Part shown: positions 30,123 to 37,981 of the stretch, one piece after another
How positions within the stretch are numbered: position 1 is the first letter of the stretch
How the letters are laid out: the number at the start of each line of letters is the position of its first letter
Assembly: GCA_003132505.1 (NCBI GenBank)
Contig: PKXY01000007.1
Location: 79,856-143,855, forward strand
Direction of reading: 5' to 3'
Source: Solirubrobacterales bacterium
Lineage (GTDB): Bacteria > Actinomycetota > Thermoleophilia > Solirubrobacterales > Solirubrobacteraceae
Length of the DNA stretch: 64,000 bases
Notes under the pieces: model-generated
What the model saw: only the letters and a program-made list of their open reading frames with translations
What the model was told of the DNA's origin: nothing
The model's database searches: none
Program-made: the position numbers and the translations under genes

Positions 30123-30800
30123 CTAGCGCGGCGGCTCGGCGAGCTTGTTCGCGTACGCGTAGCGCACGGCCTGCGCGCGGTCGCGCAGGCCGGCCTTTGC
30201 GAACAGGTGGTTGATGTGCGACTTCACGGTCGTCGGGCTGACGACCAGGCGCTCGGCGATCTCGGCGTTTGTCAGTCCGTCGGCGATCAGCGCGAGCACT
30301 TCGGCCTCGCGTCGCGTCAGTCCGTCTGGCAGCGTGGACTCATCGCAGGCGGGCGGCTGAGCGTTCGGGGTCGCGAGTGCCGCGACGACGTGGTGCTGGA
30401 TCGCCGGGTCGAGGGCCGCTTCGCCGGCGGCGACGCTCTTGATCGCGGCGGCGATGTCCTCACTGGAAGCGTCCTTCGTTAGGTAGCCGCGCGCGCCGGC
30501 GCGGAGCGCGCCGATCACGCTCTCGTCGTCGGCGTAGGTGGTGAGCGCGATCACTCCGACTCGGGGGTCGTGAGCAGTGATCGCACGCGTTGCCTCGATC
30601 CCGTCCATCCGTGGCATCCGCAGGTCCATCAGCACCACGTCCGGTGAGTGCGCTGCCACGGCCGCGCAGGCTTCCTCCCCGTCGCAGGCGGTTGCGACGA
30701 GCTCTACGCCCCGGAGCAGTCGGAGTAGCGTCGCGAGGGCCTCGCGCACGAGCCGCTGGTCGTCGGCGAGGACCACGCGCACGACGCGATCAGCTGCCAC
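30123..30800 (-). CDS. NarL/LuxR-family response regulator
   Basis: A 225-residue regulator. Receiver domain at residues 1-120 with acidic pair DD (13-14), phospho-acceptor D59 in VVLMDLRMP, and the LTTYADDESV and LTKDAS (Lys switch) segments. The HTH at the C-terminus is LTRREAEVLALIADGLTNAEIAERLVVSPTTVKSHINHLFAK. The start is GTG 30800, overlapping the sensor kinase stop by 11 bases. It likely binds the dyad at 32039-32114 to control both itself and the divergent export genes. Confidence 0.92.
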   Translation of the reverse strand: MAADRVVRVVLADDQRLVREALATLLRLLRGVELVATACDGEEACAAVAAHSPDVVLMDLRMPRMDGIEATRAITAHDPRVGVIALTTYADDESVIGALRAGARGYLTKDASSEDIAAAIKSVAAGEAALDPAIQHHVVAALATPNAQPPACDESTLPDGLTRREAEVLALIADGLTNAEIAERLVVSPTTVKSHINHLFAKAGLRDRAQAVRYAYANKLAEPPR

Positions 30801-32004
30801 TGCCGTGCCCGTCGAAGCTTGGGATGCGTAGCTCGACGCGGAACCCGTGCGGCGTTGGCGCCGCGAGCAGGCTGCCGCCGAGCAGCTCCGCGCGTTCACG
30901 CATTCCGACGAGCCCGTAGCCGCCGCCCGTCTCGCTCGCCGGCGCAAGATGTGGTGTCGGCGCCGCCGCCCGGTCCTCCACGACGAGCACCGTCGCGTCG
31001 TCGTGGTAGTCGAGTCTGACGTCGACTGCGTCTGGCACCGCGTGGCGGCGCACGTTGGTCAGCGCCTCCTGGGCGGTGCGGTACACGGCGAGGCGTGCGT
31101 CAGGCGGCAGGTCGCGCGGCTTGCCGCTCACCTCGAGTGAGACCGGTAGGGCGCTCTGTTCGCTGAATCCGTCCACCAGCGCCGCCAGTCGGTCCGGCCC
31201 GGGCATCTCATCGCCACGCGCCGCGGCAACCGCCTGGCGTGCCTCGTCGAGGCCGCTGGCCGCCAGGTGGTGGGCGGTGTCGAGCGCACGAGCGAGCTCA
31301 CGGTCGACGTCCTTTTCATGGGCTAGCAGGCGCGTGCTCTCCAGGTGAAGCGCCAGCGCCGATAGCGAGTGCGCGAGCACGTCGTGCAGCTCGCGCGCGA
31401 TCCGCCCGCGCTCGGCTGCCACCTGCGCGCGCGCCTCGGCGACCGATGAGAGCTCGAGCGCCTCGTGCTGCGCGCGCACGTGCCGTAAGAGTCTCAGCAC
31501 GAGGAACCACGGCAGCGTTCCGAGGATCAGCAGCGAGGCGGTTGCCGGCAGCGCGTCTTTGATACCGGCGACGATGAGCAGGGCGCCGTCTGCGATCGCG
31601 AGCGTGACGGGGCCTGAGACGCGTCCGAATCGGAGGGCTGCCACGACGGCCACGAAGTAGGGGCCGGTCTGCCACGACGCGTTGTGCTGCAGCAGGTCAT
31701 CGGCCACCGATGCGGCGGTCATTGCCATGACGAGGAGGAACATCTCTGGCTCGCCGATCCGCTTCGAGGGGCTGCTCGCCGCGATGAAGCCTCCCCCGAC
31801 GGTTACGACGAAGCCGACCGTCGCGATCAGGACCGCCAGGCCGGTTCCGTGCAGTCCCGGGTGCGGGCTCGTCGTCAGGGCCTTCAGCACTGCCGCCGCG
31901 ATGACGACCGAGGCGATCGCGCGCAGCGTCACGACCTCGCGCATCGACGCGATCGGGTGCGTGGATCCGCCGTTGCGATACCAGGTCTTCAGTGCACTAA
32001 GCAT
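30790..32004 (-). CDS. DesK/NarX-type sensor histidine kinase
   Basis: A 404-residue membrane kinase. About five or six helices fill residues 30-175 with little extracellular sequence, so it probably senses within the membrane. The HisKA_3 box is GRIARELHDVLAHSLSALAL (His207), and the ATPase region contains QEALTNVRRHA and GYGLVGMRERAELLGG. It is transcribed with the response regulator and divergently from the peptide and ABC genes. The layout resembles LiaFSR/DesKR-style envelope or antimicrobial sensing. Confidence 0.92.
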   Translation of the reverse strand: MLSALKTWYRNGGSTHPIASMREVVTLRAIASVVIAAAVLKALTTSPHPGLHGTGLAVLIATVGFVVTVGGGFIAASSPSKRIGEPEMFLLVMAMTAASVADDLLQHNASWQTGPYFVAVVAALRFGRVSGPVTLAIADGALLIVAGIKDALPATASLLILGTLPWFLVLRLLRHVRAQHEALELSSVAEARAQVAAERGRIARELHDVLAHSLSALALHLESTRLLAHEKDVDRELARALDTAHHLAASGLDEARQAVAAARGDEMPGPDRLAALVDGFSEQSALPVSLEVSGKPRDLPPDARLAVYRTAQEALTNVRRHAVPDAVDVRLDYHDDATVLVVEDRAAAPTPHLAPASETGGGYGLVGMRERAELLGGSLLAAPTPHGFRVELRIPSFDGHGSGS

Positions 32005-32015
32005 CCCGCCGGGAA

Positions 32016-32137
32016 AGGGTACGGCCCGCGTGCACGGCTGTCATCGGCTCTCGGGTGGCCTGCCCGTCTCCACCCACGGGTGGAGACACAAGTTCGACCC
32101 GTGCGCCGATGACAACGCGAGTGCGTCTGCCTAGGCT
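32016..32137. promoter_or_regulatory. Mirror-image divergent promoters in a nested dyad operator
   Basis: The outer arms TGTCATCGGC (32039-32048) and GCCGATGACA (32105-32114) are perfect complements; extending them gives about 17 of 20 matches. An inner perfect 10-2-10 inverted repeat lies at 32066-32087 (arms GTCTCCACCC and GGGTGGAGAC). Rightward: -35 ATGACA (32109-32114), 17-base spacer, -10 TAGGCT (32132-32137). Leftward: -35 ATGACA (complement of 32039-32044), 17-base spacer, -10 TACCCT (complement of 32016-32021). Both -35 boxes are part of the outer arms, so one bound regulator could control both transcripts. The leftward transcript would have almost no leader. Confidence 0.7.
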
Positions 32138-32168
32138 GCCGAGAGTCCCCAAGACGAAGGAGAACACA

Positions 32169-32246
32169 ATGATCCTCATCCCCCTCTTTGCCTACCTGAT
32201 GCGTGCCTGGCGCCGTCGCCGCGCCAGTCGCGTAGCGGCTGCCTAA
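32169..32246 (+). CDS. 25-residue hydrophobic/basic peptide ahead of an ABC transporter
   Basis: ATG at 32169 follows an ideal AAGGAG ribosome site (32157-32162). The product starts MILIPLFAYLMRAW, a short hydrophobic helix, then RRRRAS and a small tail. It is the first reading frame of the transcript from the 32109/32132 promoter and ends 41 bases before the ATPase gene. It could be a membrane micropeptide partner of the transporter, its substrate or a leader peptide. The sequence does not decide among these. Confidence 0.6.
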   Translation: MILIPLFAYLMRAWRRRRASRVAAA

Positions 32247-32287: not shown

Positions 32288-33022
32288 ATGAACACTCAAA
32301 CACCAGCCGCACACACCGTCGCGCTTACGAAGGCCTATGGCGCTGGCGAGACGGCGGTGCGCGCGCTCGACGGCATCGACGTCGCGTTCGAGCGCGGTCG
32401 CTTCACAGCTGTTATGGGCCCTTCGGGCAGCGGCAAGTCGACGCTGATGCACTGCATGGCGGGGCTCGACGCGCCGAGTGCGGGGCAGACCTACATCGGC
32501 GAGCGCGAGCTCGGTCAGCTCGATGACTCTGAGCTGACCGAGCTGCGCCGCGACCAGATCGGCTTCGTCTTCCAGGCCTTCAACCTCGTGCCCACGCTGA
32601 GCGCGGGCGAGAACATCACGCTGCCTTTGAATCTCGCCGGTCGGAGCGTCGATCGTGAGTGGTTCGACTATCTCGTCGGCGCGCTGCGCATCGCCGACCG
32701 CCTCTCGCACCGTCCGAGCGAGCTCTCCGGCGGCCAGCAACAGCGCACTGCCTGCGCGCGCGCACTGATGTCTCGGCCTGAGCTGCTCTTTGCGGACGAG
32801 CCGACTGGCAATCTTGACTCGAACGCCTCCGCCGAGGTGCTCGAGTTCCTGCGGCGCTCGGTTGACGAGCACAGGCAGTCGATCGTCATGGTCACGCACG
32901 ATCCGCGCGCCGCCGCCCACGCCGACCGCGTGGTGTTCCTCGCCGACGGGAGGGTCGTCGGCGAGCTCGCCTCGCCGACAGCGGATTCGGTGCTCGAGCA
33001 AATGCGGAAGCTGGGTAGCTGA
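32288..33022 (+). CDS. MacB/LolD-type ABC transporter ATPase
   Basis: A 244-residue ABC ATPase. Walker A GPSGSGKST, Q-loop FVFQAFNLVPTLSAGENITLPL, signature LSGGQQQRTACARAL, Walker B LLFADEPTGNLD and H-loop MVTHDPRAAAHADRV are intact. The start ATG follows AAGGAGTGAC. This branch powers FtsX-type permeases, and such a permease (frameshifted) starts two bases after its stop. Control by the divergent two-component system is likely. Confidence 0.93.
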   Translation: MNTQTPAAHTVALTKAYGAGETAVRALDGIDVAFERGRFTAVMGPSGSGKSTLMHCMAGLDAPSAGQTYIGERELGQLDDSELTELRRDQIGFVFQAFNLVPTLSAGENITLPLNLAGRSVDREWFDYLVGALRIADRLSHRPSELSGGQQQRTACARALMSRPELLFADEPTGNLDSNASAEVLEFLRRSVDEHRQSIVMVTHDPRAAAHADRVVFLADGRVVGELASPTADSVLEQMRKLGS

Positions 33023-33023
33023 G

Positions 33024-35556
33024 ATGCGCGCCATCACGCTCAAAGGCGTGCTCGCACGCAAGCTGCGCCTCACCCTCACGGCGCTCTCGATCGTGCTGGG
33101 GGTGACCTTCGTAACCGGCACGCTGATCCTAGGCGACACGCTCAATCGCACGTTCGACAACCTGATCGGCACCGTCTACCAGCACGTCAGCTTCGAGGTT
33201 CGTGGCGACGCGAAGCTCGTCAGCACCACCAACGCGGCCGCGGCTGGTGTCGACAGCACCGCGTTTCGCAGGCCCGTCCCACACTGTCCTGACGGCGGTT
33301 CGCCAGGTGCCCGGCGTCGCGTTCGCCTACGGATCCGTCGGTGGCTACGCCCAGTTCGTTGACCACGCCGGCAACGCGATCGGCAACGCGCGCAGCGCCG
33401 AGGGGTTCTCGTTCGACCCAAACCCGAACCTCTCAGCCGTTCACATCGTCGCGGGCCACGCGCCGGTCGGTCCGCACCAGGTCTTGATGGATCTCGGCAC
33501 GGCGCACAAGCACCACTTCGCGACCGGCCAGCAGGTCCGCGTGCTGCTTCCCGGTAAGCCGGAGACCTTCACGATCTCCGGGCTCGTCAAGTTCGGCAGC
33601 GCCGACAACCTCGCTGGGATCTCGCTCGCCGCCTTCTCACTGCCAGTTGCCCAGCAGCTCTTCAACTCGCGCGAGTACTACGACACGATCAACGTGCTCG
33701 CCAAGCACGGCGTCGACAACGTCGCGCTGCAGCGGGCGATCGCGCGCGTCCTGCCGCCCGGCGTTCAGGTCGTGAGCGGCCAGGAGATCGCGAGCGAGTA
33801 CTCGAACGCCATCAGCAGCGCGCTCTCGTTCATCACGACGGCGCTGCTCATCTTCGCCTTCATCGCCCTGTTCGTCGGTGCGTTCACGATCTTCAACACC
33901 TTCTCGATCACGGTCGGTCAGCGCACGCGCGAGCTCGCCCTGCTGCGCGTCGTCGGCGCGAGCCGCCGCCAGGTCTTCCGTTCGGTGCTCGCCGAGGCCG
34001 CCGTGACGGGGCTGGTCGCATCGCTGATCGGCATCGGGCTTGGCGTGCTCGCCGCGCTCGGGCTCAAGGCGTTGCTCGGGGCCTTTGGCATCACCCTGCC
34101 CTCCTCGCCGCTCGTCTTCGAGGCGCGCACGCCGATCGTCGCGCTCGTGGTGGGTGTCGGCGTGACGGTCGTGGCGGCGATCGCGCCGGCGCGGCGCGCC
34201 GTCAAGATCCCCCCGGTCGCGGCGCTTGTCGCACAGCTCGAGGACCAGCGCGATTCGCTGCGCCGACGCATCGGCCTAGGCAGCGGCGTCGGCATCGTCG
34301 GCCTCATCTGCCTGCTCGTAGGCTTGACCGAGCCCTCGATCGGCCTCGTCGGGCTTGGCACGCTGGCGCTGTTCGTCGCGACCGCGATGCTGATGCCGAT
34401 CGTCGCCCGCCCGGCCGCTGGGGTGCTCGGGCGCCCGCTGGCAGCGCTGCGCGGAATGCCGGGCCGCCTCGGCCGCGAGAACTCGATGCGCAGCCCCCGC
34501 CGCACGGCTCAGACAGCCTCCGCGCTGATGGTCGGGATGGCGCTCGTCTCGACGATCGCCGTGCTCGGCTCATCGCTTGGCAGATCGGCGACGAGCGAGG
34601 TCAATCGCGCCGTTGCCGCCGACTATCTCGTGACCTCGGGCAGCGTCAGCCGTGAGGTCGCGCCGACGATCGCGAAGCTTCCCGGAGTCGAGACGGTCTC
34701 GACCGTCTACGAGGGCCAGTTCGACTTCAAGGGCTCGCTCTCGAGCCTGCACGCGATCTCGCCGGTGCACCTGTCGCGCACGCTCACCTTGCAGCTGACC
34801 GCCGGGACGGCGGCCCCAGCGCTCGCCGCCGAAGAGCTTCTGATTGACAGCGAGACCGCCAGCTCGAACGCCCTACACGTCGGGTCGGTGGTTCCCGTCG
34901 ACTTCGCGCAGACCGGCCCGACGCAGATGCGGATCGGCGGGATCTACATGCAGAACCCGCTCGTCGGCAGCTTCGTCATCTCCGACAAGCTCTTCGTCTC
35001 GCACTTCGACAACCCGCTACCGGTTGCCGACCTCGTGCGCACCACCACGGGCGCCACCGGCGTCGACCGCGAGCTGAACCGCGCGCTCGCGCCCTACGCG
35101 AACCTTACGATCCAGTCGCGCTCGCAGTTCGAGCAGAAGTCCCAGTCCCAGGTCAACCAGCTGCTCGGCCTGATCTACGTGCTGCTCGCGCTCGCGATCG
35201 TGATCGCCCTGATCGGGATCGTCAACACGCTGATGCTCTCGGTCTTCGAGCGCACGCGCGAGATCGGCCTGCTGCGCGCGGTCGGGATGAAGCGCCGCCA
35301 GGTGAAGTCGATGATCCGCTCCGAGGCCGTCATCATCGCCCTGCTCGGCGCCGTCGTGGGCATCGTCATCGGCACCGGTCTCGGAGTCGCGCTGAGCTGG
35401 TCGCTACGCAACAACGGCGTCACCGTCATCTCCGTCCCGCTCGGCAGCTTGATCCTGTTCCTCGTCCTCGCGGCGCTGCTCGGCTTGGCGGCCGCGAACT
35501 GGCCCGCGCGGCGCGCCGCCAACCTCGACGTGCTGGCCGCTATCGCGACCGAATGA
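33024..35556 (+). pseudogene. MacB-like ABC permease with an internal frameshift
   Basis: Residues from ATG 33024 read MRAITLKGVLARKLRLTLTA and continue as a normal FtsX-family N-terminus to AFRRPVP near 33279. The homologous continuation (TVLTAVRQVPGVAFAYGSV) is then in the next frame and runs unbroken to 35556. One extra base, or two missing, between about 33270 and 33290 explains this. The remainder has the duplicated FtsX core (IFNTFSITVGQRTRELALLRVVGAS and VNTLMLSVFERTREIGLLRAVGM) with about eight helices in total and two extracytoplasmic domains. No slippery heptamer is obvious. It may be a true mutation inactivating the exporter or a base-call error; the reading frame is otherwise fully conserved in style. 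Confidence 0.8.
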
Positions 35557-36282: not shown

Positions 36283-36903
36283 TTAAGCACCGGTCACGCA
36301 TGTTGCTCGGTCGAAGATCGTGACTGCTTCGCGGGCGTATTGGTCGACGTCGAACGCTGGGTTGGCCAGTCGGCCGAGCGCCGCGTCAATGACCGCCCGG
36401 ATCGCGATCGCCATCGCATTCGGATCGAAGTCGGTTCGGAAATCGCCGGCGGTCTGGAAGCGCGTGAGCAGCTCGGCGAGGATGTGGACGCCCGCGTCGG
36501 GGTTGCCAGTGAATGGGCTCTTGGCGCCGGCGATCGTCGCGCGTACGATCTCTAGGAGGGCGTTGAGCTGATTGGGGTTGTCGCGCATGAACTCGAGGTT
36601 GGACTCGATGTAGGCGCGCAGCATGTCTGGGCCGGTTGTTTGCGCTTCGATGCGAGGCTGCATGTAGGCCCTCGCTTGTTGGAGCACCTGGCTGACGATC
36701 TCGGCGATCAGGTCGTCTTTGCCGGCGAAGTGGTAGCTGATCACGCCCTTGCTGATACTGAGCCGTAGCGCGATACGCGAGAGCGAGGCGTTCTTGTAGC
36801 CAACTTCGGCGACGGTCTCGATCGCAGCCTCAACGATCTGCGCCCGTCTGGCGCTACTCACAAACGAGCGGTCATCGCCCGTGTTCTTTGACCGCACGGC
36901 CAA
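36283..36903 (-). CDS. TetR family transcriptional regulator
   Basis: A 206-residue regulator. The N-terminal HTH reads RRAQIVEAAIETVAEVGYKNASLSRIALRLSISKGVISYHFAGKDDL, typical of TetR. The C-terminal ligand domain is all-helical and not assignable. The start is TTG 36903, or GTG 36897. It diverges from an ABC-2 exporter and probably represses it; a dyad overlaps its own start codon. Confidence 0.92.
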   Translation of the reverse strand: MAVRSKNTGDDRSFVSSARRAQIVEAAIETVAEVGYKNASLSRIALRLSISKGVISYHFAGKDDLIAEIVSQVLQQARAYMQPRIEAQTTGPDMLRAYIESNLEFMRDNPNQLNALLEIVRATIAGAKSPFTGNPDAGVHILAELLTRFQTAGDFRTDFDPNAMAIAIRAVIDAALGRLANPAFDVDQYAREAVTIFDRATCVTGA

Positions 36904-36904
36904 A
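36887..36904. promoter_or_regulatory. Candidate TetR operator
   Basis: TTTGACCG-CA-CGGCCAAA (36887-36904) is an inverted repeat with one mismatch per arm, overlapping the TetR start codon. A second related pair, GGTTTTG (36922-36928) with GGCCAAACC (36938-36946), lies just upstream of a TAGCGT -10-like box (36952-36957) for the exporter. Shared TTTG/CAAA half-sites suggest one protein binds both. Assignment is inferred from position. Confidence 0.45.
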
Positions 36905-36982
36905 AATTAGCACGCCACGCAGGTTTTGTGTCCGGGTGGCCAAACCATTGCTAGCGTTGGCGAAGTGAGTTCGGGGCAGTCT

Positions 36983-37981
36983 ATGACAGGCGCACCGGAG
37001 AAGCGATCCCGCTCCGCGGCCAGCTCGCTCGCCCCAGCGCCGGGCGATCATGCGCTTACGGTTGAGCGTCTGAGTAAGCGCTTCGGCGACCGTGCTGCTT
37101 TTGAGGACGTTTCATTTGAGGTCGGCTACGGCGAGGTGTTCGGCTTCCTGGGTCCGAACGGGGCGGGCAAGACCACGACCGTGCGCACGTTGGGCACGCT
37201 GATCGCCCCCAGCTCCGGGACGGCGACGGTCGCCGGGATTCAGCTGACCGCGGACAACGGCCCGTCGATCCGTGCGCGGATCTCGATCATGCCGGAGTCA
37301 CCGGGCCTGTATCTGCGCCTGACGGTGATGGAGAATCTGCAGTGCTTCGCCGGGCTCTACGAGCTCGACGATGTCCGTGGACGGATCGAGCGTGCGCTGC
37401 GGTCGGTCAACCTTCTCGACCGCGCGGGAGACCCGTGCGGCTCGCTCTCGAAAGGCTTGCGCCAGCGGGTCGCGCTCGCGCGGGCGCTGCTCAACGATCC
37501 GGCGGTTCTGTTCCTTGACGAGCCGACTTCGGGCCTCGATCCCGTGGCGACGCGCGAGGTCCACGATCTGATCGGCTCGCTTCGCGAGTGCGGGGTCACG
37601 ATCTTCCTCACCACGCACCGGCTTGAGGAGGCCGAACGGCTGTGCGATCGGGTGGCCATCCTGAGTACGACGTTGCGACTGATCGGCCGGCCCGACGAGC
37701 TACGTCAGCGGCTGTTCAGGCGCTCTCTGGACGTGCGGGTCCGTGCGCCGCTCGAGGACCTCAAGGTCGTGCTCGGCGCTCTGCCCGAGGTCGAAGGATG
37801 GGAGCAGACTGCCTCTGGCTACACGCTGAACGTCTCGGACCCCGACCTCGCAGCTCCAGCCCTCGCGCGAGCACTCGTCGCAGCCGGCGCCGACATCCTC
37901 TCGATCGCCGAGTCGCGCCACTCACTCGAGGACGTCTACCTCGAGCTGCTCGACGAGGACGTCGAGGCGAAGCGACCGTGA
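36983..37981 (+). CDS. ABC-2 exporter ATPase
   Basis: A 332-residue ATPase. Walker A GPNGAGKTT, signature LSKGLRQRVALARAL (the LSKG variant), Walker B VLFLDEPTSGLDP, H-loop FLTTHRLEEAERLCDR, and a C-terminal domain of about 110 residues as in NatA/DrrA exporters. ATG 36983 is used; GTG at 36965 and 36926 are alternative starts. Its stop overlaps the permease GTG by 4 bases. Confidence 0.9.
   Translation: MTGAPEKRSRSAASSLAPAPGDHALTVERLSKRFGDRAAFEDVSFEVGYGEVFGFLGPNGAGKTTTVRTLGTLIAPSSGTATVAGIQLTADNGPSIRARISIMPESPGLYLRLTVMENLQCFAGLYELDDVRGRIERALRSVNLLDRAGDPCGSLSKGLRQRVALARALLNDPAVLFLDEPTSGLDPVATREVHDLIGSLRECGVTIFLTTHRLEEAERLCDRVAILSTTLRLIGRPDELRQRLFRRSLDVRVRAPLEDLKVVLGALPEVEGWEQTASGYTLNVSDPDLAAPALARALVAAGADILSIAESRHSLEDVYLELLDEDVEAKRP

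What the first reader, a model, noticed from the sequence alone, without database searches (positions are those of the whole stretch)
32016..32137. Mirror-image divergent promoters built into a nested dyad
The sensor kinase and the peptide/ABC operon appear to be read from two ATGACA-N17 promoters. Each -35 box is the tip of one outer arm (TGTCATCGGC / GCCGATGACA). A second perfect 10-2-10 inverted repeat sits at the centre, 17 bases inside each arm. A single operator complex could switch export genes and its own regulator together. Symmetry this complete is unusual; seen directly, with the regulator assignment inferred from the adjacent NarL-type gene.
Basis: partly seen in the sequence, partly recalled or inferred. 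Interest (0 to 1): 0.72.

Follow-up and report, generated by a model that had tools for sequence, protein, structure and literature searches.

The report
Shared switch for sensor and exporter
Between a bacterial stress-sensor pair and an exporter operon lies a symmetrical DNA switch, conserved across the Actinomycetota, where the sensor's own partner protein most likely binds to turn on both neighbours; the type of switch is known, but I found no earlier description of this one.

Summary
Comparative evidence turns it into a conserved operator-promoter. The core is a NarL-type 7-2-7 dyad, TCCACCC-N2-GGGTGGA. Each promoter also has a weaker proximal 7-2-7 site (TCNRCCC-N2-NNGCCGA) running into its -35, with the -10 at a fixed distance. 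The element turned up in 68 genome loci, nearly all Actinomycetota, often beside the same HisKA_3 kinase/NarL-family regulator pair, although the output gene differs (MacB-type ABC, DrrA-type ABC, small membrane protein, unlinked MMPL exporter). Core-to-GCCGATG spacing falls into two classes one helical turn apart (18-21, 28-31), placing the core near -68.5 or -78.5; E. coli NarL activates from -67.5 and -77.5. In a protein-first test 5 of 7 close regulators and 0 of 33 paralogues carry the core. A recognition-helix Asn marks 35 of 36 operator-linked regulators. Best reading: phosphorylated regulator binds the shared core plus a proximal site on either side and activates exporter and its own kinase/regulator operon. 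Exact mirror symmetry is special to this genome (both gaps 20). Binding and activation remain untested.

The parts
32069..32084 (.). Core operator, perfect 7-2-7 inverted repeat TCCACCC-AC-GGGTGGA (centre 32076.5), shared by both promoters
   Evidence: only exact copy in the 2.75-Mb genome; conserved in relatives
32094..32109 (+). Proximal site of the exporter promoter, TCGACCC-GT-GCGCCGA (centre 32101.5, 25 bp from the core); right half runs into the -35
   Evidence: heptamer 1 is TCNRCCC in most of 62 sites; mean complementarity in this register 4.0 of 7 against 2.0 in shifted registers
32044..32059 (-). Proximal site of the kinase promoter, GCCACCC-GA-GAGCCGA (centre 32051.5, 25 bp from the core), degenerate
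   Evidence: left-hand units also present in L055, L066, L069, L075, L107, L118
32109..32137 (+). Predicted promoter of the exporter operon: ATGACA-N17-TAGGCT; predicted start of transcription near 32145
   Evidence: TANNNT sits 19-21 nt after GCCGATG in 44 of 62 homologous sites and only once elsewhere within 60 nt
32016..32044 (-). Predicted promoter of the kinase/regulator operon: ATGACA-N17-TACCCT; predicted start near 32008, nearly leaderless
30790..32004 (-). Sensor histidine kinase (HisKA_3, HATPase_c), hydrophobic N-terminal half
   Evidence: Pfam
30123..30863 (-). NarL/LuxR-family response regulator (Response_reg + GerE), recognition helix TTVKSHINHLF; upper coordinate is the reading frame used here, the true start codon is uncertain
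   Evidence: Pfam; PDB relatives VraR, DevR, NarL; helix comparison
32169..32246 (+). Small ORF MILIPLFAYLMRAWRRRRASRVAAA with GAAGGAG ribosome-binding site, first gene of the exporter operon
   Evidence: homologue MILVLPLIGYFVRAWRRRRAARPVTG directly behind the same operator-promoter in L079/L210
32288..33022 (+). MacB-type ABC transporter ATPase
   Evidence: Pfam PF00005; 75% identical to the L055 ATPase beside the same operator
33024..35556 (+). FtsX/MacB-type permease, read in two frames with a shift near 33277-33284

Best explanation
This is a bidirectional operator-promoter for an autoregulated two-component export system. The membrane kinase (30790-32004) phosphorylates the NarL-family regulator encoded beside it. 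A regulator dimer binds the perfect central 7-2-7 site (centre about -68.5 from each predicted start), and further dimers bind the weaker 7-2-7 sites that run into each -35 (centre about -43.5). From there the regulator recruits RNA polymerase to both promoters and raises the exporter operon and its own kinase/regulator operon together. Shown by sequence: the sites, their spacing, their conservation and their co-inheritance with this regulator clade. Inferred: binding, the need for phosphorylation, activation rather than repression, and the signal (probably a membrane- or envelope-active compound).
For: Core, outer unit and -10 are kept in related loci even where the output gene is unrelated. 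Class-level pattern scan: 10 sites in 8 of 399 genomes, reversed control 0. 68 loci in genome contigs, nearly all Actinomycetota. Spacing quantised at 18-21 or 28-31: 59 of 68 actinobacterial sites, binomial p about 7e-26, against 2 of 10 hits in other phyla. Protein-first sample: 5 of 7 regulators at 56% identity or more carry the core, 0 of 33 at 44-51%; Fisher p 3e-5. Kinase-ranked loci: L002-L006 and L009-L011 carry the core or a symmetric variant, L012-L029 none within one mismatch. Tree: 33 of 36 operator-linked regulators fall in one 37-row clade (support 98) whose other 4 members have degenerate or no detected cores; 6 label changes against 28.4 shuffled. Asn in the recognition helix in 35 of 36 linked regulators; of 54 unlinked ones 4 have it and all 4 are in the same clade. 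Gordonia regulators outside the clade have both the Asn and the core. NarL of E. coli binds 7-2-7 sites and activates ogt from -44.5, -67.5 or -77.5 (PMC7419079).
Against: No binding, expression or start-site data. The proximal sites are degenerate, the left one in the window more so (3 of 7 complementary). Transcription starts are predicted from leaderless start codons and may be off by a few bases. The pattern used to collect the genome-contig loci was designed from this operator, so that set is not an unbiased sample of the clade. Klenkia sites (L080, L111, L114) and MMPL sites lie away from a clade regulator. Position alone cannot exclude repression.
Confidence: 0.82

Rival explanations
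1. Same operator and same regulator, but the bound regulator represses one or both promoters because the proximal sites overlap the -35, and the signal relieves the block.
For: The proximal half-site GCCGA reaches into the -35 on both sides. NarL-family regulators can also repress (own knowledge).
Against: The core is 25-35 bp further upstream and held on two helical phases, which suits contact with polymerase from upstream better than a simple block; the -10 hexamers are weak and the -35 region is conserved as GCCGATG rather than TTGACA, as in activator-dependent promoters; the positions match those at which NarL activates.
Confidence: 0.13
2. The dyad is bound by a different, non-adjacent regulator (for example another LuxR-family protein or the nearby TetR at 36283-36903), and adjacency to the two-component genes is incidental.
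For: Some copies stand away from a clade regulator: MMPL sites in L072, L077, L086, L115 and Klenkia sites.
Against: 0 of 33 paralogue loci against 5 of 7 orthologue loci; co-inheritance on the tree; helix signature; 7-2-7 geometry is that of NarL. Two assemblies with unlinked MMPL sites (SZAS-9, SZAS-10) also have the regulator with its own operator (L071, L065), so those sites fit trans targets.
Confidence: 0.04
3. Chance or a non-regulatory palindrome: hairpin terminator, cruciform or transposon end repeats.
For: High G+C sequence yields inverted repeats; the window has more 10-bp arms with short gaps (14) than shuffles (2.5).
Against: Concentric pair absent from all shuffles; conserved across genera with fixed spacing; genes diverge, so neither predicted transcript contains the core.
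Confidence: 0.01

Closest known systems
NarL at the Escherichia coli ogt promoter (PMC7419079)
   Same: NarL-family regulator; 7-2-7 inverted repeats; one site abutting the -35 (-44.5) and one upstream (-77.5); activation also works from -67.5. Here predicted centres are -43.5 with -68.5 or -78.5.
   Different: Different half-site (TCCACCC; the NarL consensus is TACYYMT, own knowledge); Asn instead of a Lys in the recognition helix (NarL residue from own knowledge); one upstream site serves two divergent promoters; many starts look leaderless.
LnrJK-LnrLMN of Bacillus subtilis (polyene-induced two-component system and ABC exporter, PMC7472640)
   Same: Two-component system controlling a neighbouring ABC exporter; LnrJK is of the HisKA_3/NarL kind (own knowledge); DrrA-type ABC outputs in L065, L066, L069, L075, L107, L117, L118 resemble it in content.
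   Different: lnrJKLMN is collinear, with a promoter before lnrL, not a shared divergent dyad; the window's exporter is MacB/FtsX type; no homology test to LnrK was run here.
VraR, DevR/DosR, DesR (NarL-family regulators with solved structures)
   Same: Nearest solved relatives of the window regulator with the same two-domain plan; VraR and DesR belong to envelope or membrane stress systems (own knowledge).
   Different: Distant in sequence and, as far as I know, with different target sequences.

Membership tests
NarL/FixJ-family response regulator | CheY-like receiver plus GerE/LuxR helix-turn-helix | tested here: met
   Response_reg 9.6e-29 and GerE 1.1e-18; PDB hits VraR, DevR, NarL
NarL-type 7-2-7 operator | Two inverted heptamers separated by 2 bp | tested here: met
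   TCCACCC-AC-GGGTGGA at 32069-32084; conserved, including the doubly changed variant TCAACCC-N2-GGGTTGA in L006 and L009
NarL-type 7-2-7 operator | Located where NarL is known to activate (about -44.5, -67.5, -77.5) | tested here: met
   Spacing classes 18-21 and 28-31 plus fixed -10 and start codon give about -43.5, -68.5, -78.5; starts of transcription are predicted, not measured
NarL-type 7-2-7 operator | Bound by phosphorylated cognate regulator | not testable with these tools
   Needs footprint or gel shift; only co-inheritance shown
E. coli NarL recognition sequence | Half-site TACYYMT | tested here: not met
   Half-site here is TCCACCC: same geometry, different sequence
LnrJK-LnrLMN type exporter system | ABC-2 type exporter with DrrA-like ATPase | tested here: not met
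   Window exporter is ABC_tran plus FtsX/MacB_PCD; some relatives (L066, L069, L075) have DrrA-like ATPases instead
LnrJK-LnrLMN type exporter system | HisKA_3 kinase and NarL-family regulator next to the exporter | tested here: met
LnrJK-LnrLMN type exporter system | Induction by polyene-like membrane-active compounds | not testable with these tools
   no expression data

The most novel reading that the evidence does not exclude
A phylum-wide regulatory module in which one regulator clade and one operator stay fixed while the output is swapped: MacB-type ABC, DrrA-type ABC, small membrane proteins, a TMEM175-like channel, distant MMPL exporters and a conserved arginine-rich micropeptide. One Asn in the recognition helix sets the operator code, and the core may sit on either of two helical phases. 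The micropeptide would be a co-regulated modulator of the sensor or exporter.
Probability: 0.4. Interest if true: 0.62.

Novelty: new variant of a known kind. Interest (0 to 1): 0.5.

Why it matters
It gives a concrete, testable regulator-operator pair for an apparently uncharacterised sensor family that occurs across the Actinomycetota, including Streptomyces and Micromonospora. The operator lets one read off regulons (unlinked MMPL exporters already appear), predict leaderless start sites, and test a one-residue specificity determinant. The back-to-back arrangement also asks whether one upstream dimer can serve two promoters at once.

Tried and rejected
Sigma-70 consensus scan found no promoter: hexamers too far from the E. 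coli consensus, so the promoters rest on conservation instead. Terminator-like hit on the minus strand at 32109-32094 judged chance: it lies upstream of the leftward -10, outside both predicted transcripts. Scan for further targets in the own genome with TCNACCCNNNNGCCGATGAC: beyond the two units at this locus only three other one-mismatch hits, not followed up, so no second target is claimed. Searches for AbeABCD and for papers printing the motif gave nothing on this system; only open-licence papers are held, so absence is weak evidence. Peptide search over 299 class genomes: only G256 (same sequence as L079) is convincing; most others look like chance matches to arginine-rich frames. First idea that GCCGATG is a third direct-repeat half-site (11-bp period with TCNACCC) gave way to the proximal 7-2-7 reading, which the register test supports.

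Full report
WHAT IS THERE. Outer arms TGTCATCGGC (32039-32048) and GCCGATGACA (32105-32114) enclose a perfect 10-2-10 repeat (32066-32075/32078-32087) with 17 bases on either side, all on one centre. ATGACA-N17-TAGGCT points right and ATGACA-N17-TACCCT points left. In shuffles that keep dinucleotide frequencies a concentric pair with arms of 8 or more never appeared in 20,000 versions of the intergenic region, nor one with arms of 9 in 1.28 Mb.

SURROUNDINGS. Leftward: a HisKA_3 histidine kinase (30790-32004) and an overlapping NarL-family regulator (30123-30863). Rightward: a 25-residue ORF with a good ribosome-binding site (32169), a MacB-type ABC ATPase (32288-33022) and an FtsX/MacB-type permease. 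The genome is a 2.75-Mb, 45-contig assembly. Two genomes that the tool places in the same family have contigs of exactly the lengths of Conexibacter sp. S30A1 (3,458,291) and Solirubrobacter phytolaccae (47,832) records, so the window most likely belongs to the Solirubrobacteraceae in the broad sense (inference).

CONSERVATION. Kinase relatives were collected by protein similarity alone. L003, L004, L005, L010 and L011 all carry TCCACCC-N2-GGGTGGA upstream, followed by a TCNACCC...GCCGATG unit, although what lies on the other side is a DrrA-type ATPase (L003-L005) or another membrane protein (L010, L011) rather than a MacB-type ATPase. L006 and L009 carry the doubly changed but still symmetric TCAACCC-N2-GGGTTGA in the locus. 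A scan of 399 genomes of the class found the core plus CGCCGATG in 8 genomes at 10 sites, with no match for the reversed pattern. Although a gap of 5-30 was allowed, the exporter side used 20 (once 18) and the kinase side 28.

BREADTH. One scan of genome contigs with TCCACCCNNGGGTGGAN{15,45}GCCGATG gave 68 loci: Streptomyces, Kutzneria, Micromonospora, Gordonia, Klenkia, Solirubrobacter, Conexibacter and many Solirubrobacterales assemblies, plus about ten hits in other phyla that look like chance. In the actinobacterial set 59 of 68 gaps fall in 18-21 or 28-31 (binomial p about 7e-26 against an even spread), while only 2 of 10 hits in other phyla do. The two classes differ by about one helical turn.

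PROMOTER ANATOMY. In 62 non-redundant sites, TANNNT begins 19-21 bases after GCCGATG in 44 and only once elsewhere in the next 60 bases. Start codons often follow at +32 to +34, so many of these genes look leaderless. Upstream of GCCGA, in exact 7-2-7 register, stands a heptamer TCNRCCC; complementarity between the two heptamers averages 4.0 of 7 against 2.0 in shifted registers. Each promoter therefore has a proximal degenerate 7-2-7 site that runs into the -35, and shares a perfect 7-2-7 core with the opposite promoter. Taking the leaderless start as +1, proximal centres lie at about -43.5 and the core at about -68.5 (gap 20) or -78.5 (gap 30). In the window the three centres are 32051.5, 32076.5 and 32101.5, exactly 25 bp apart. 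Ten other loci have units on both sides, most often with gaps 20 and 28, so exact mirror symmetry is peculiar to this genome while the bidirectional plan is general.

WHICH PROTEIN. A protein-first test across 296 genomes of the phylum separated orthologues (56% identity or more) from paralogues (52% or less). The core was found in 5 of 7 orthologue loci outside this genome and in 0 of 33 paralogue loci; the reversed sequence gave 0 in 335 kb. The two orthologue loci without it keep scattered half-sites (L170, L172). On a tree of 90 regulators, 33 of the 36 operator-linked ones fall in one supported clade with four members that have degenerate or no detected cores; the label needs 6 changes against 28.4 when shuffled. 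The recognition helix reads TVK[ST]H[IV]N in 35 of 36 linked regulators; among 54 unlinked ones only the four clade members have that Asn, the others mostly Gly or Ser. The exception, L111, has its regulator several kilobases from the site. Two Gordonia regulators outside the clade have both the Asn and the core, while their near relatives in the tree have neither, which hints at convergence. By ungapped alignment with NarL the Asn lies at the position I recall as Lys192, a DNA-contacting residue (own knowledge).

MECHANISM. NarL of E. coli binds 7-2-7 sites as a dimer and activates ogt from -44.5, -67.5 or -77.5, by contact with the polymerase alpha subunit (PMC7419079). The positions inferred here match within about one base. 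I therefore read the window as two ogt-like promoters back to back that share the upstream site. Phosphorylated regulator on the core and the proximal sites would switch on the exporter and its own operon together, a positive feedback loop. Repression remains possible because the proximal sites touch the -35. The signal is unknown; by analogy with LnrJK (PMC7472640), and with VraSR and DesKR (own knowledge), a membrane-active compound or membrane disturbance is likely.

REGULON. In this genome the core occurs once without mismatch: the circuit looks local. In assemblies SZAS-9 and SZAS-10 the kinase/regulator/ABC locus (L071, L065) and a separate MMPL-type exporter gene (L086, L077; family confirmed by Pfam on the near-identical L072) carry the same operator, so the regulator probably acts in trans there. 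The small peptide has a homologue directly behind the same promoter in L079/L210, without an ABC gene after it, which argues that it is a real product.

LIMITS. All of this is sequence comparison. Start sites are predicted. The genome contigs sample was drawn with a pattern modelled on this element; the protein-first tests are the unbiased part. The literature held is open-licence only, so 'not described before' is provisional.

VERDICT. A real, conserved, autoregulatory operator of a known general kind (NarL-family 7-2-7 control) with an apparently undescribed sequence, a shared bidirectional layout and swappable outputs.

Noticed in passing
window 33277-33284: The FtsX/MacB-type permease is read in two frames: residues 17-125 of the L055 homologue match one frame and 124-885 the next. 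Assembly error or a broken exporter; not decided.
   Followed up: partly
window 32169-32246; L079 3319; L210 1495: A conserved 25-26 residue peptide with a hydrophobic N-terminus and an RAWRRRRA core is the first product of the operator-driven transcript; in L079/L210 it stands without an ABC gene behind it.
   Followed up: partly
L072, L077, L086, L115, also L059 and L061: MMPL-family exporter genes (Pfam confirmed for L072) carry the same core operator with a TCCCCCC proximal heptamer and gap 28-30, with no kinase/regulator found in the fetched stretch: probable trans targets.
   Followed up: partly
L055 313, L069, L075 6446, L118: ABC ATPases of two different types (MacB-like and DrrA-like) begin with the same stretch M[FLI][ST]NS[LV]DAAVA, as if the promoter and the start of the gene were kept while the rest of the exporter was exchanged.
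   Followed up: no
L054, L078 (Gordonia): Regulators outside the main clade have both the recognition-helix Asn and the core operator; their near relatives in the tree lack both. Possible convergence.
   Followed up: no
L080, L111, L114 (Klenkia): Core operator with gap 18 before a conserved start ATGGAGAACGTGTCG; the regulator found in L111 is not of the clade and lacks the Asn.
   Followed up: no
window 36283-37981: A second divergent pair close by: TetR-family regulator (36283-36903, minus) and DrrA-type ABC ATPase (36926-37981, plus).
   Followed up: no
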